23,465 bases of DNA from a virus, in the IMG/VR virus record IMGVR_UViG_3300037459_000016, positions 1 to 23,465 of that record. One strand, 5' to 3'. Positions 469 to 10,958 of the stretch are shown in pieces (positions within the stretch are counted from its first letter, which is position 1; each line of letters opens with the position of its first letter). The position numbers and the translations under genes are program-made. The notes beneath the pieces were generated by a model. That model was given only the letters and a program-made list of their open reading frames with translations. It did not search any database and was not told where the DNA came from.

Positions 469-792
469 ATGGAAATAACAGAAGCATTACAAGCAATGAA
501 GGGTAAAGATACATTTACGGATGTGTTAATTGATACCGCAGAAAAGAGCCATAACAACCTAAACGAATTTGTTGCTTATCAGGTTTCACAATACAACGAA
601 CCCGAACTTAAACACGACAAAGAAAACAGTAATAAGTCAAGGATGGATAAAACATTCACCAAGGAAGTAATGAAAGTCTTAGTTGATTATGATGAGAAAG
701 GGAATGTTATCAAATGCCCACATTGTAAAAGTGATGATGTAAGTGATATTGAAGGAATAATGTGGTGTTCTGGTTGCGACTCTACGTATTAA
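469..792 (+). CDS. zinc-ribbon protein, 107 aa
   Basis: The C-terminus holds a CxxC-x13-CxxC zinc ribbon (Cys83, Cys86, Cys100, Cys103) in the final 25 residues, the usual shape of a small treble-clef or rubredoxin-like zinc site. The first 80 residues are polar with no recognised domain. It begins three bases after the previous stop, so it is probably co-transcribed with the two genes upstream. A DNA- or RNA-binding role is plausible from the zinc ribbon but not shown. The gene is followed directly by the first attC-like intergenic motif (791-838), which overlaps its stop codon. Confidence 0.65.
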   Translation: MEITEALQAMKGKDTFTDVLIDTAEKSHNNLNEFVAYQVSQYNEPELKHDKENSNKSRMDKTFTKEVMKVLVDYDEKGNVIKCPHCKSDDVSDIEGIMWCSGCDSTY

Positions 793-838
793 CGTTTGCT
801 AATGACTAAACTATGGGTAGTGATTGCCCGAATTAAAA
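791..838 (+). repeat. attC-like intergenic motif, site A (degenerate)
   Basis: It begins in the stop codon of the zinc-ribbon gene. It contains the left half CTAATGACTAAACTATG shared almost exactly with site C (1566-1582) and partly with site F. A short hairpin GGGTA/TGCCC (816-830) follows. The right arm TTAG seen in the other sites is missing, so this copy looks decayed or truncated. Confidence 0.4.
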
Positions 839-859
839 ACTAAATAAACTAAATAACAG

Positions 860-1165
860 ATGGAATACAAAGCTGAAGATTATATAAATTTTATTGAGCA
901 AAAAAGATTTGATAAAATAAGTAGAAACGGAATGGAATTAATAGCGATTGAATTTAGAGAACTACAAAAGCAAGGGGAAACATTACCTATAGATAATGTT
1001 AGCGTTGCGTTACCGAGTATTGAAAGTATTGAGTTTTGTAATTGGTTAGAAGAAAATGGATATAAAGGAACTCTTAATGCTTGCTTGTATTTAAAAAATG
1101 ATATGGAATATTATAAAGATGTTTTGTACCAACATTACACTAATTTATTAGAGTTTGGAAAATGA
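860..1165 (+). CDS. hypothetical protein, 101 aa (cassette-like)
   Basis: Soluble, acidic, probably helical protein with no recognised family, signal peptide or membrane segment. It stands alone between two attC-like intergenic motifs: site A before it and site B starting on the last base of its TGA stop. This one-gene, one-palindrome arrangement is what a mobile gene cassette looks like. The leader before ATG is A-rich (ctaaataacag) without a Shine-Dalgarno sequence, as expected in Bacteroidota. Function unknown. Confidence 0.6.
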   Translation: MEYKAEDYINFIEQKRFDKISRNGMELIAIEFRELQKQGETLPIDNVSVALPSIESIEFCNWLEENGYKGTLNACLYLKNDMEYYKDVLYQHYTNLLEFGK

Positions 1166-1220
1166 ACGCTAATGCTGAAAACTAAATAGCGTTTTAATGC
1201 GTTTAGATTGTGTTAGCGTT
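1165..1220 (+). repeat. attC-like imperfect palindrome, site B
   Basis: The perfect 8-base outer arms AACGCTAA (1165-1172) and TTAGCGTT (1213-1220) flank an inner pair CTAAA/TTTAG with GC/GC inside and a short loop. The left arm begins in the stop codon of the preceding gene. Two paired boxes separated by unpaired spacers is the secondary structure expected of an integron attC site. The box sequences differ from the classical RYYYAAC/GTTRRRY. No T-run follows, so it is a poor intrinsic terminator. Confidence 0.5.
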
Positions 1221-1248
1221 TGTTTTTTAACTAAAAAAATATAATAAA

Positions 1249-1557
1249 ATGGATAATAGAAAATGGCTTAAAAGAAAATACCCTGAATCTTTTAATAAAG
1301 TAAATGGTTTTTTAAATGATGAACAATTGCAAACCTTTAAGGATGGTAAGTATAAGATAGGAGAAACAACTGACGTATTGAATGAAGGAGAAAATTACGG
1401 AAAAGGTACGTTGACAATGTTTAAAAGAAGTAATCCTGTAAACGATTACAATTACCCAATGCATACGATAATAGTTAAATGTAATGATGGAGTTACAGCA
1501 AGCGGATACAATAGTTTTTGGATAACACCAAACCAATGTAAAGAAATAGCTAAATAG
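1249..1557 (+). CDS. hypothetical protein, 102 aa (cassette-like)
   Basis: Basic soluble protein with many aromatic residues (Tyr, Trp, Phe), no recognised family and no export signal. It lies between palindromes B and C, again one gene per palindrome. The leader is an A-rich stretch (ctaaaaaaatataataaa) ending at ATG, with no Shine-Dalgarno sequence. Function unknown. Confidence 0.6.
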   Translation: MDNRKWLKRKYPESFNKVNGFLNDEQLQTFKDGKYKIGETTDVLNEGENYGKGTLTMFKRSNPVNDYNYPMHTIIVKCNDGVTASGYNSFWITPNQCKEIAK

Positions 1558-1561
1558 TATT

Positions 1562-1631
1562 AACGCTAATGACTAAACTATGTTTGCGGTTGTTTTTCAC
1601 AACTGAAATATAGGTAGTGTTAGTTGCAGTT
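1562..1631 (+). repeat. attC-like imperfect palindrome, site C
   Basis: The outer arms AACGCTAA (1562-1569) and TTAG..GTT (1620-1631) enclose CTAT (1578-1581) pairing with ATAG (1610-1613), and a central hairpin GTTGT/ACAAC (1589-1593 with 1599-1603). The left half is nearly identical to sites A and F. It starts four bases after the stop of the preceding gene. Confidence 0.5.
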
Positions 1632-1656
1632 TTAATAATTAAATAAATATAAAGAT

Positions 1657-2142
1657 ATGTTAGTAAATTTAACACCAATAAAAGAAGAACAAGAAAGAAG
1701 AGCTTTAATAGCTAAAGAAAATAATTTTGAATACACACCTCAATCTGACCCTAAATATTTACAAGAGACAGGTATTTACCAAAGTTCTTTTGCTTATAAC
1801 TTTCCGGAAGATGAATTTAAGGAGCTTGAAAAGTTATCGTATGATGACAGGTATAAAATATTTGAAAACTATGAAAAGATAACACATGGAGTTGCTGATA
1901 CTATTGAGCAAATAAAAGAATACTACAAGGAAGAGGTGTTGGATGAGAATAAAAAATACGCAATAGCCCTAACACCTGTGTGGCAGGAAATTGAAAATAA
2001 AGGAAAAGGTGGTGGCTGGAGATGGCACAAGTGGGGTGAGTATATTGGTAAGTTAGACCCACAATGTGAGCATTTAGATGATGAAGATTTTGGAAAAGAC
2101 TTTAAGTATGTAATAACCTTTACTTTATATGCAGTAAGGTAA
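1657..2142 (+). CDS. conserved hypothetical phage/plasmid protein, 161 aa
   Basis: The C-terminal third holds a GGGWRWHKWGEYIGK block (about residues 118-132) followed by an acidic P-Q-C-E-x-L-x-D-E stretch. I recall this signature from many small mobile-element proteins of unknown function, where the WHKWGxYIG motif precedes a C-terminal beta-rich end. The N-terminal hundred residues are charged and helical. No membrane segment is present. It lies between palindromes C and D as the fourth gene of the cassette-like block. The biochemical role is unknown; the family memory is from pattern recognition, not a search. Confidence 0.65.
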   Translation: MLVNLTPIKEEQERRALIAKENNFEYTPQSDPKYLQETGIYQSSFAYNFPEDEFKELEKLSYDDRYKIFENYEKITHGVADTIEQIKEYYKEEVLDENKKYAIALTPVWQEIENKGKGGGWRWHKWGEYIGKLDPQCEHLDDEDFGKDFKYVITFTLYAVR

Positions 2143-2147
2143 TTGCA

Positions 2148-2197
2148 ACTAATACAGAGCTTGGTGGCGTTTTTCATGCCGCTTAGCGGATATTAGG
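2148..2197 (+). repeat. attC-like imperfect palindrome, site D
   Basis: The arms CTAATA (2149-2154) and TATTAG (2191-2196) pair perfectly. An inner hairpin GGCGT/ATGCC (2166-2180) and a conserved AGCGGAT segment lie between them. The right end from 2183 to 2207 matches site G (5117-5141) in 24 of 25 bases, although the hearts differ. It follows the stop codon by five bases. Confidence 0.5.
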
Positions 2198-4337: not shown

Positions 4338-4343
4338 TTTATA

Positions 4344-4405
4344 AAACGTGTTGGGCACATTTTTAATTGATGCCTAATGGCTACTGTATGTTTAGTGCGA
4401 ATTAA
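4344..4405 (+). repeat. attC-like imperfect palindrome, site E (weak)
   Basis: TTGGGCA (4351-4357) pairs with TGCCTAA (4371-4377) with one G-T pair. A short CTAA/TTTAG pair follows (4374-4377 with 4391-4395). The order of arms differs from the other sites and the outer boxes are poor, so this copy is degenerate. The leader after it (GCGAATTAACTGATAAATT) resembles that after sites A and F. Confidence 0.35.
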
Positions 4406-4427
4406 CTGATAAATTAAATTGATAAAG

Positions 4428-4721
4428 ATGGATATAAAATACTTAGAATACGAGATTAATAGATTAGATATATTTAAAAGCACTTGCGAGTTAAGTAGCG
4501 ATGGTGAAGAAAAGCTAATTGAATTTAAAGCAATAAAGCAAGCATTAAATATACAGAATGTTAGCGTTTTGTTGTTAAAGAAGTTCATGGAGCACACTTT
4601 TAATTGCTCTGGCACTAACTATGTTTCTGATATAAAACAACCTTGGAGTGGTGTTAAATTTAGTAAAGAAGAAGCACTCTTATTGGAAATGTTACAAAAA
4701 GAAATAGACCCAGAGCAATAA
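4428..4721 (+). CDS. hypothetical protein, 97 aa (cassette-like)
   Basis: Helical, acidic protein without a recognised family. I start at ATG 4428; an in-frame TTG at 4419 would add three residues. It lies between palindromes E and F. A segment inside the gene (4562-4625) resembles the attC-like sites: it has TTAGCGTT, a 14 of 15 base match to the core of site E, and CTAACTATG. The 3' third of the gene may therefore have been built across an old site. Function unknown. Confidence 0.6.
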   Translation: MDIKYLEYEINRLDIFKSTCELSSDGEEKLIEFKAIKQALNIQNVSVLLLKKFMEHTFNCSGTNYVSDIKQPWSGVKFSKEEALLLEMLQKEIDPEQ

Positions 4722-4786
4722 ACGCTAATGACTAAAATATGTTTTTGTACTTTTTGGTATAAAATATATTTTGTGTTAGGTTTAGT
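4721..4786 (+). repeat. attC-like imperfect palindrome, site F
   Basis: The outer pair is CTAA (4725-4728) with TTAG (4776-4779). The inner perfect pair is AAAATAT (4734-4740) with ATATTTT (4766-4772), and the central pair is GTAC/GTAT around a T-rich loop. The right box GTTAGGT (4775-4781) fits the attC consensus GTTRRRY. The left end AACGCTAATGACTAAA equals site C and overlaps the preceding stop. Confidence 0.5.
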
Positions 4787-4813
4787 TATTAACTGAAAAA
4801 TAATTTTAAAAAA

Positions 4814-5065
4814 ATGAATAAAAAAAAGTACGAAATATTAAAAAAACGTTGCAATATAGCTGAAAGTGATTTGAATACTGCAACGGGTAGAATGGAAGCC
4901 GAAATGCAGCCGTTTTTTAAAAGCGAAATAACTGTTCTTTTTCAACCATCTGATGGATTTGTAGTGCTTGTGTTAGATACTGATAGTATAGGAAATGCCC
5001 CATCTAATTTAGGTATAGATGAAGTTTTTAAAACAATAAGTGAAAACCCTAAATTTTACCTGTAA
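4814..5065 (+). CDS. hypothetical protein, 83 aa (cassette-like)
   Basis: The N-terminal half is a basic helix; residues about 38-57 are a hydrophobic beta hairpin (ITVLFQPSDGFVVLVLDTDS). No membrane segment is clear. It lies between palindromes F and G, one gene per site. The A-rich leader directly precedes ATG. It could be a small antitoxin-like or DNA-interacting protein, but no family is recognised. Confidence 0.6.
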   Translation: MNKKKYEILKKRCNIAESDLNTATGRMEAEMQPFFKSEITVLFQPSDGFVVLVLDTDSIGNAPSNLGIDEVFKTISENPKFYL

Positions 5066-5075
5066 AGTAATTAAA

Positions 5076-5131
5076 CCTAACACGGAGCTATGTTGCTTAA
5101 GCGAAGCGGTGCAATATTAGCGGATGTTAGG
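5076..5131 (+). repeat. attC-like imperfect palindrome, site G
   Basis: Perfect outer arms CCTAACA (5076-5082) and TGTTAGG (5125-5131), with TTGC/GCAA inside and a loop that itself contains GCTT/AAGC. The left box ACCTAAC matches the integron box RYYYAAC exactly and the right box GTTAGGA matches GTTRRRY in six of seven positions, making it the most attC-like copy here. Confidence 0.55.
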
Positions 5132-5188
5132 AAATGTTTATAAATTTAATAATTAAGGGAATGAAAGAAGAAGAAATAATAAAATAAC

Positions 5189-10183: not shown

Positions 10184-10288
10184 ATGAAAAATATTATTGA
10201 GAAAATGAGAAGCGTTACAATTGTTTTAATGACTATTATTACGGTAATAGTTTTAATTGATATGATTATCAAGTATGTAAATGGATAA
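10184..10288 (+). CDS. single-pass membrane peptide, 34 aa
   Basis: A 34-residue product with a short basic start (MKNIIEKMRS) and a hydrophobic segment of about 20 residues (VTIVLMTIITVIVLIDMIIK). Its stop lies eight bases inside the glycosyltransferase-like gene, whose ATG is at 10281, so the two are translationally coupled and probably act together. Like the next gene, it interrupts the usual connector-to-head-closure order and looks like inserted cargo. A membrane anchor or partner for the glycosyltransferase is a guess; holin-like action is not supported by one segment alone. Confidence 0.55.
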   Translation: MKNIIEKMRSVTIVLMTIITVIVLIDMIIKYVNG

Positions 10289-10958
10289 AAAGATACTAAT
10301 ATTACTCCCGATTTGGAAACGTGAAAGCATAACAAAGATTTGCTTTGATAATTTAAAGGAACTACAAAAAGAATTTAACATTGAGGTGTTATGTATAGTT
10401 TCCGAGCAATGGGCAAAGATATTAGCATTTGAATACGGTTTTAAGTACGTGAACGCTTCTAACGAATGTTTAGGTACAAAGATGAATATAGGAGTTAGAG
10501 AGTCTTTAAAGTACAAGTATGATTACTTAATGAATTTAGGTAGTGACGACATTATAACAAAAGAATTATTCAATTGTTATTCTGATTATTTTAAAATTAA
10601 CTATCCTTTCTTTGGAGGTACAAGATTAACGTTTATTAATAGTGCCAGTAAAGAGATTAAAACGTGCGATTATCAGGTGTTGATAGGTGCTGGTAGATGT
10701 ATTAGAAGGGACGAATTAGAAAAGGTATTAGACAGAGGTGAAATGTATGATAAAATACAGAAGGGCTTAGATATGAATAGTATGAGTAAATTTATTTGTT
10801 CAATGACTGAGATTAAAAACCCTTTTACAAGTATTTACGATATTAAAAGCGATGTTAATATTTGGACCTATACAAACATTGGAGGAACAACTATAGATTT
10901 CGAGAAAGGCGTTGAGGGATTAAGTACAAAACAAATAGATAATATATTAGAGCTATGA
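10281..10958 (+). CDS. glycosyltransferase-like protein, 225 aa
   Basis: MDKKILILLPIWKRESITKI is the first strand and helix of a GT-A nucleotide-sugar-binding fold, as in family 2 transferases. A helix with LGTKMNIGVRES (about 64-75) is typical of the segment before the DXD strand. Then YLMNLGSDDIIT (82-93) carries Asp89-Asp90 at the metal-binding position, and GAGRCIRRDELEKV (136-149) fits the acceptor loop. It is a second, different glycosyltransferase-like gene within the structural operon, wedged between connector and head-closure genes and overlapping both neighbours (eight bases upstream, four downstream). It may modify a virion protein or host surface glycan; the substrate is unknown. 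Confidence 0.65.
   Translation: MDKKILILLPIWKRESITKICFDNLKELQKEFNIEVLCIVSEQWAKILAFEYGFKYVNASNECLGTKMNIGVRESLKYKYDYLMNLGSDDIITKELFNCYSDYFKINYPFFGGTRLTFINSASKEIKTCDYQVLIGAGRCIRRDELEKVLDRGEMYDKIQKGLDMNSMSKFICSMTEIKNPFTSIYDIKSDVNIWTYTNIGGTTIDFEKGVEGLSTKQIDNILEL

What the first reader, a model, noticed from the sequence alone, without database searches (positions are those of the whole stretch)
791..2197. Integron-like cassette block with attC-like palindromes in a Bacteroidota phage (first array)
Seen: four genes of unknown function (stops at 792, 1165, 1557, 2142) are each followed within a few bases by an imperfect palindrome with outer arms CTAA/TTAG, unpaired spacers, inner arms and a variable heart (sites A-D). 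Arm identities are conserved while the gene sequences are unrelated. Known: integron cassettes are single genes in one orientation, each carrying an attC site after its stop, whose function depends on folded shape. Inference: these are cassettes of an integron or a similar recombination system carried by, or captured into, a phage accessory region. No integron integrase is visible here.
Basis: partly seen in the sequence, partly recalled or inferred. Interest (0 to 1): 0.75.

Follow-up and report, generated by a model that had tools for sequence, protein, structure and literature searches.

The report
Orphan integron-like cassettes in phage
The palindromes in this phage fragment are recombination sites of movable one-gene cassettes, and in isolated relatives of such phages the same kind of cassette is gained and lost beside an unusual integrase gene, which points to a little-known integron-like gene-swapping system in Bacteroidota viruses and their hosts.

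Summary
The palindromes are real, though site A is degenerate and folding alone is weak. They mark integron-like cassettes. A cassette runs from GTT-N7-GT to AT-N7'-AA(C/T), where N7' is the exact reverse complement of N7. Two window cassettes fit this 7/7 (0 of 300 shuffles reach two) and one fits 6/7. A second array, not in the finding, lies at 4338-5135.

Searching outward from the rule led to its probable machinery. In Bacteroidota viral contigs, 45 of 52 distinct loci of a ~265-aa XerA-like tyrosine recombinase carry such arrays directly upstream (133 cassettes upstream, 4 downstream), ending at an attI-like AAC-TATYATATAT. Seven isolates of Polaribacter phage Freya, otherwise at least 99.98% identical over the genomes compared, differ by whole cassettes there. 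Every junction lies at AAC, and one isolate has an empty site.

The system works like an integron but is not canonical. The recombinase lacks the IntI-specific insert, and in the phage pool the genes point toward attI. Flavobacteriales chromosomes hold a related version in classical orientation.

The window itself is an orphan (CALIN-like) array with no recombinase seen on the fragment. Phage CALINs were already known (Qi 2023).

The parts
793..838 (+). Site A: degenerate attC-like site (left arm GCTAATGACTAAACTATG; no proper GTT-N7 right arm)
   Evidence: Left arm shared with C and G (family D2); fold z -0.23; right side pairs with no cassette end
860..1165 (+). Gene between A and B, 101 aa, unknown; probable cassette with an eroded 5' boundary
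   Evidence: ORF; no PHROG or Pfam hit; ends in N7' GAACGCT-AAT but lacks a matching start tag
1164..1221 (+). Site B: N7' 1164-1170, AAT 1171, hairpin, GTT 1212, N7 AGCGTTT 1215-1221
1171..1567 (+). Cassette B->C (phage-type unit: AAT-hairpin-GTT-N7-gene-N7'), gene 1249-1557, 102 aa, unknown
   Evidence: Tag match 6/7
1561..1628 (+). Site C: N7' 1561-1567, AAT 1568, hairpin, GTT 1619, N7 AGTTGCA 1622-1628
   Evidence: near-identical site in another phage, L013:2300
1568..2150 (+). Cassette C->D, gene 1657-2142 (161 aa, phrog_18298, unknown function)
   Evidence: Tag 7/7 plus G/T rule; 81% aa homologue in a cassette with another tag in L057, apparently non-cassette homologues in L060-L063
2144..2201 (+). 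Site D: N7' 2144-2150, AAT 2151, hairpin, ATT 2192, N7 AGGAAAT (orphan start, no matching end in the window)
4338..4405 (+). Site F: degenerate attC-like site at the 5' edge of the second array
   Evidence: Sequence reading; no matching tag
4428..4721 (+). Gene between F and G, 97 aa, phrog_21984 (unknown)
   Evidence: ends in N7' AAACGCT-AAT
4720..4784 (+). Site G: N7' 4720-4726, AAT 4727, hairpin, GTT 4775, N7 AGGTTTA 4778-4784
   Evidence: Fold z -2.25
4727..5078 (+). Cassette G->E, gene 4814-5065 (83 aa, unknown)
   Evidence: Tag 7/7 plus G/T rule
5072..5135 (+). Site E: N7' 5072-5078, AAC 5079, hairpin, GTT 5126, N7 AGGAAAT (same orphan start tag as D)

Best explanation
The window carries two short orphan arrays of integron-like cassettes. 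Each unit is AA(C/T)-hairpin-GTT-N7-gene-N7'. When the unit closes into a circle, N7' sits next to N7 and the hairpin becomes a fully paired attC-like site. A tyrosine recombinase of the XerA-like family encoded by related Bacteroidota phages exchanges DNA at the AAC/GTT trinucleotide. It inserts units at an attI-like site (AAC-TATYATATAT) next to its own gene and deletes them again. Shown here: cassette anatomy, adjacency of recombinase and array, and natural whole-cassette gain and loss at AAC in isolated phages. Inferred: that this recombinase is the catalyst, that the substrate is a folded single strand or cruciform, that the window's arrays were once built by such a recombinase (the phage's own beyond the contig ends, a host's or another phage's), and that the cargo, with DNA methyltransferases the commonest recognisable genes, helps phages against host defences.
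For: Window: two exact rule-fitting cassettes vs shuffle mean 0.013, 0 of 300 shuffles with two; plus one at 6/7. Unbiased test on contigs picked only by the start motif GTACGGATTATTAA: the matching tag (7/7 in 15 of 17, 6/7 in 2) stands at the end of the same gene unit, usually after TAGTAT; the same-site match never exceeds 5/7. All loci: 227 rule-fitting pairs vs 6.8 per shuffle. Recombinase adjacency: 45 of 52 distinct loci have arrays upstream; 133 cassettes upstream on the same strand vs 1+4+1 elsewhere in similar room. attI-like motif in 48 of 68 vs 1.9% background (alignment). Freya isolates: genomes 99.98-100% identical apart from 63/905/1807/2279/4103/4698/5005 bp between a fixed gene and the integrase; every junction lies at AAC, minimal shared sequence 3 bp; empty attI in Freya_1; single-cassette differences F5/F6 (472 bp) and F9/F10 (307 bp); internal 902-bp unit absent from F8. 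Reordered identical cassettes L147/L149/L172. Hairpins between linked cassettes fold well: median z -2.7 top strand, -2.2 bottom. Recombinase: invariant R129, K154/K157, H213-xx-R216, H239, Y248; model pLDDT 90, best PDB match integron integrase 2A3V, Z 21.5, tied with XerA, Z 21.2.
Against: No recombinase or attI on the window's own fragment, and no exchange was seen for this phage itself; close relatives covering the array were not found (L001 starts just upstream of the portal). Sites A and F are degenerate, and the start tags after D and E have no matching ends, so the arrays may be decayed. No enzymatic test exists for this recombinase. It lacks the I2 insert thought necessary for single-strand attC recombination (PMC7790495). 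The GTTRRRY consensus is relaxed to GTT plus a variable tag.
Confidence: 0.88

Rival explanations
1. The palindromes are transcription terminators or RNA elements between small genes and do not move.
For: They lie between co-directional genes; single sites fold only moderately better than shuffles, and more stably on the top (coding) strand; attC sites are thought to contain weak terminators (PMC9892861).
Against: Terminators do not explain exact reverse-complementary tags at the two ends of a gene, different in each gene, nor whole-unit indels at AAC in Freya, nor hairpins whose right arm is translated as the cargo N-terminus.
Confidence: 0.03
2. Modules shuffled by ordinary homologous recombination between repeated hairpins, like the mobile regulatory cassettes (PeSL) of T4-type phages (recalled, not searched).
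For: Similar hairpins are repeated within arrays (a 48-bp hairpin recurs in L147/L149/L172); Freya encodes RecT.
Against: In Freya the two recombining sites share as little as 3 bp, always AAC. Arrays are anchored to one side of a recombinase gene. Homologous exchange gives no reason for start and end tags to be reverse complements.
Confidence: 0.05
3. Canonical integron cassettes (IntI-type) captured from bacteria; a host IntI moves them.
For: A Polaribacter-phage attC of similar shape recombines with IntI1 x attI1 in E. coli (PMC9892861). 7-bp core complementarity within a cassette is classical.
Against: No IntI (TIGR02249, E<=1e-50) in 396 Flavobacteriales genomes, though no control genome held one. 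The arrays sit beside a recombinase below the IntI cut-off that lacks its insert. The cassette-end rule (N7 plus G/T) is not seen in the canonical array of Vibrio phage MK672802.
Confidence: 0.1
4. Mini-transposons (MITE-like units) with terminal inverted repeats mobilised in trans.
For: The units have inverted terminal tags.
Against: Tags differ in almost every unit, so no transposase could recognise them by sequence. Units are in tandem head-to-tail, and the Freya empty site needs no target duplication beyond the shared AAC.
Confidence: 0.02

Closest known systems
CALINs in phages (Qi et al. 2023, PMC9892861), notably Polaribacter phage P12002L
   Same: Integrase-less clusters of attC-like sites between short genes in a Flavobacteriia phage; DNA methyltransferase cargo; AAC..GTT hairpins
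   Different: That work used canonical attC models and IntI1. It did not describe the 7-nt tag rule, the inverted gene orientation, the attI-like site, the XerA-like recombinase, or natural excision in isolates
Canonical integrons (IntI, attI, attC; e.g. the V. anguillarum integron in phage MK672802)
   Same: One-gene cassettes, G|TT-type exchange, attC hairpin with paired outer and inner arms, attI beside the integrase, insertion next to the integrase
   Different: The integrase lacks the IntI-specific insert; cassette genes in phages point toward attI; longer variable R arm (GTT-N7 plus conserved G/T); RRRY not conserved; the array lies upstream of a co-directional integrase
XerA / XerC-like tyrosine recombinases (NF040815; PDB 5HXY, 4A8E)
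   Same: Sequence and fold of the array-associated recombinase; catalytic residues
   Different: Xer proteins resolve dimers at dif; here the gene sits at the edge of cassette arrays
Mobile regulatory cassettes (PeSL) of T4-type phages (recalled)
   Same: Small phage genes separated by stem-loops, reshuffled between relatives
   Different: No recombinase, no complementary tags, exchange by homology

Membership tests
Integron (canonical) | IntI-family integrase with the additional I2-containing insert | tested here: not met
   Array-associated recombinases score 102-150 bits on TIGR02249 (cut-off 265); about 50 residues of 2A3V are skipped; gap in alignment with the V. anguillarum IntI
Integron (canonical) | attI site beside the integrase where cassettes enter | tested here: met
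   Conserved AAC-TATYATATAT between last cassette and integrase; single cassettes differ there between Freya isolates. Not present in the window
Integron (canonical) | Cassette ends: core GTT.. and inverse core ..AAC complementary within one cassette | tested here: met
   but RRRY/RYYY consensus relaxed and complementarity extended to 7 nt and more
Integron (canonical) | attC hairpin with R''/L''..L'/R' architecture | tested here: met
   Fold and z-scores; site A and F exceptions
Integron (canonical) | Hit to the IntegronFinder attC covariance model | not testable with these tools
   Model not available; Rfam has no match at gathering score in the window
Integron (canonical) | Cassette genes read away from attI, attC after the gene | tested here: not met
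   Phage pool 176 toward vs 17 away; Flavobacteriales chromosomes the classical way, 50 to 2
Integron (canonical) | Exchange of whole cassettes at G|TT (AAC) | tested here: met
   Freya isolates; not shown in the window's own phage
CALIN | At least two attC sites with no integrase nearby | tested here: met
   Sites B, C, D and G, E; PF00589 search of the record empty; contig is a fragment, so absence is provisional

The most novel reading that the evidence does not exclude
Bacteroidota phages and chromosomes carry a distinct class of integron built on a XerA-like recombinase without the I2 insert. In phages the cassettes are inverted (attC before the gene, often overlapping its start, genes reading toward attI and into the integrase), and the phage reshuffles anti-host genes quickly enough to differ between isolates.
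Probability: 0.72. Interest if true: 0.9.

Novelty: new variant of a known kind. Interest (0 to 1): 0.84.

Why it matters
Single-strand cassette recombination is held to depend on the I2 helix of IntI (PMC7790495). A recombinase without it that sits at active cassette arrays would reopen how integrons arose and what they require. It also gives a concrete mechanism for the variable gene content of Bacteroidota phages, with DNA methyltransferases the commonest recognisable cargo. Isolated phages (Freya, Ingeline, Leef) make it directly testable. Standard integron finders may miss it.

Tried and rejected
Rfam scan of the window: nothing. Megablast of the window against named phages: nothing. Exact-pattern scans GCTAAYGACTAAACTATGTT in 85k genomes and CTAAYACRGAGCTWKGTKGC in IMG/VR: no hits. 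Four of six hits of the first viral pattern were coincidental (coding sequence). Start motif GTACGGATTATTAA in genomes: 12 hits, only 3 real, all on phage-like contigs. A portal-protein search to prove that the integrase contigs are viral found none; terminase phrog_2 was found on 13 of 28. MAFFT alignment of hairpins was too poor to build a covariance model, so none was built. Cassette detection with loose criteria was noisy (about 45% expected by chance) and was replaced by the G/T rule. Exchange in close relatives of this phage could not be tested: none cover the array.

Full report
What was claimed.

The window. The record is a 23,465-base IMG/VR fragment with portal, capsid, protease and tape-measure genes. 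The stops are as stated. Palindromes B, C and D are present; A is a left half only. Two further good sites (G, E) and a degenerate one (F) form a second array at 4338-5135. By folding alone the sites are unremarkable (z from -0.2 to -2.3). What makes them special is a rule that became visible when a near-identical site was found in a larger phage contig (L013): the bases after GTT at the start of a unit are the reverse complement of the bases before AA(C/T) at its end. In the window this holds for B->C (6 of 7), C->D (7 of 7) and G->E (7 of 7). All other pairings score 5 or less, apart from B with itself (6) and B with G (7), which share a tag. Two full rule-fitting units occur, against a shuffle mean of 0.013 (0 of 300 shuffles reach two).

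Generality. L013 cassettes start with GTT-N7-GTACGGATTATTAA. A scan of IMG/VR with that start motif gave many contigs. Without using the end in any way, the matching tag was found at the end of the same unit: 7/7 in 15 of 17 cases and 6/7 in 2, usually right after TAGTAT; the neighbouring same-site tag never matched more than 5. The position after N7 is G at starts and T at ends. With that rule 227 units are found where shuffles give 6.8. In the linear array a site's two halves belong to different cassettes and match only by chance, mode 3 of 7. This is the classical integron relation (established knowledge), with a longer and freer tag.

The machinery. Three array-bearing contigs encode small tyrosine recombinases. 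Searching IMG/VR with them gave 80 loci. Of 52 distinct loci with at least 1 kb upstream, 45 hold rule-fitting cassettes upstream on the same strand: 133 cassettes there, against 4 downstream on the same strand and 1 on the opposite strand on each side. The last cassette is followed not by a hairpin but by AAC-TATYATATAT and then the recombinase start; this motif is in 48 of 68 loci against 1.9% background. It has the same R-spacer-L layout as one arm of the hairpins and is best read as attI. The recombinase is about 265 aa. Its catalytic residues are invariant (R129, K154/K157, H213-xx-R216, H239, Y248). It scores below the IntI cut-off and lacks the IntI-specific insert. Its model (pLDDT 90) matches integron integrase 2A3V (Z 21.5, 3.5 A, 253 residues) and XerA 5HXY (Z 21.2), which are tied.

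Movement. Polaribacter phage Freya (Freya_1 to Freya_10, North Sea isolates, PMC8776804) carries this recombinase, as do Cellulophaga phage Ingeline and Polaribacter phage Leef. Seven Freya genomes were read. Whole-genome comparison of four of them with Freya_10 gave 99.98-100% identity (Freya_1 to Freya_10: 43,978 bases, no mismatch). They differ in the stretch between a fixed gene and the recombinase: 63, 905, 1807, 2279, 4103, 4698 and 5005 bp. Every difference is a whole unit or group of units whose junctions share AAC; in the clearest cases AAC alone is shared. Freya_1 has the empty site. F5 vs F6 and F9 vs F10 differ by one cassette next to attI; F8 lacks an internal one. The flavophage paper reads the integrase as a sign of temperate life and its main text has no occurrence of 'integron' or 'cassette'. 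In metagenomic contigs L147, L149 and L172, identical cassettes stand in different order. The shared 3 bp argues against homologous recombination.

Which gene owns the hairpin. In L041 and L051 the same cassette sits between different neighbours. Identity begins at the AAC before the upstream hairpin and ends just past the AAC after the gene. The inserted Freya units have the same limits. In several cassettes the gene starts inside the hairpin loop and reads through its right arm. So each palindrome belongs to the gene after it. Seen from attI, phage cassettes are inverted: genes point toward attI (176 of 193 with a clear call). In Flavobacteriales chromosomes, where relatives of the recombinase (E<=1e-30) occur in 85 of 296 species, arrays obeying the same end rule have genes pointing away from attI in 50 of 52. 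In the loci inspected the chromosomal recombinase is mostly longer (about 300-380 aa) and its 3' end faces attI.

Cargo. Of 85 cassette proteins, most have no Pfam match. The commonest recognisable ones are DNA methyltransferases (7 N6/N4, 2 C5, 1 D12), with an RNA ligase, nucleases and an ADP-ribosyltransferase domain. The window's cargo is unknown; one cargo gene (1657-2142) has an 81% identical homologue in a cassette with a different tag and neighbours (L057) and apparently non-cassette homologues in other viruses.

Interpretation. The window holds orphan, partly decayed arrays of an integron-like system; the probable recombinase family is identified in relatives but not in this fragment. 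It works like an integron. It is not a canonical integron, because the integrase insert and the gene orientation were tested and not met. Known before: CALINs in phages, including a Flavobacteriia phage, and the activity of one such attC with IntI1 (PMC9892861). Not found in the library searched (open-licence PubMed Central papers only): the recombinase association, the inverted pool and the cassette dynamics in isolates. That absence is not proof of novelty. The IntI search in Flavobacteriales had no positive control and is only suggestive.

Open points. Catalysis by this recombinase is inferred from position, conservation and junctions, not shown. Whether the substrate is a folded single strand or a cruciform is unknown: the top strand folds more stably in 42 of 49 sites, unlike classical attC sites, where the bottom strand is the recombinogenic one. 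The host of the window phage is inferred.

Noticed in passing
window 4338-5135: Second attC-like array with the same orphan end tag (AGGAAAT) as the first array, outside the finding's coordinates
   Followed up: yes
L240, L241, L242, L243, L246/L247, L248, L239 (Polaribacter phage Freya_1, 2, 6, 8, 5, 9, 10): Near-identical phage isolates differ by whole gene cassettes directly upstream of the integrase, one with an empty site
   Followed up: yes
L219-L238 (Flavobacteriales chromosomes): Large chromosomal cassette arrays obeying the same end rule next to a longer XerA-like recombinase, genes in classical orientation
   Followed up: partly
L239 last cassette; L114, L140 and L241 first cassettes: Cargo ORFs begin inside the hairpin loop, so the right arm of the attC-like site is translated as the protein N-terminus
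   Followed up: partly
L018 (P12002L) about 29.2-31.3 kb and 37.2-40.1 kb: Both methyltransferase arrays end in the same ~60-bp sequence (CAACGGATAAAACAAGTTTTACC..); the second array shows more attC-like sites with start/end complementarity
   Followed up: no
L147, L149, L172, L158, L164, L165, L175, L178: A nearly identical 48-bp hairpin (AACGTCCGATGATAAACAATCGTTTTAATGTTGTTTATCATTTGTT) is reused by unrelated cassettes
   Followed up: no
NZ_CP041688 (Chryseobacterium plasmid), CP012862 (Persicobacter), Acinetobacter plasmids: Plasmids encode relatives of the recombinase; 52% identical ones in Acinetobacter, one such plasmid hit being annotated TnpF
   Followed up: no
L049:625-1936, L135:9251-9522, L053 minus 10256-10527: Same cassette gene (90-95% identical) with different hairpins on both sides, suggesting that exchange or replacement of the hairpin alone also occurs
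   Followed up: partly
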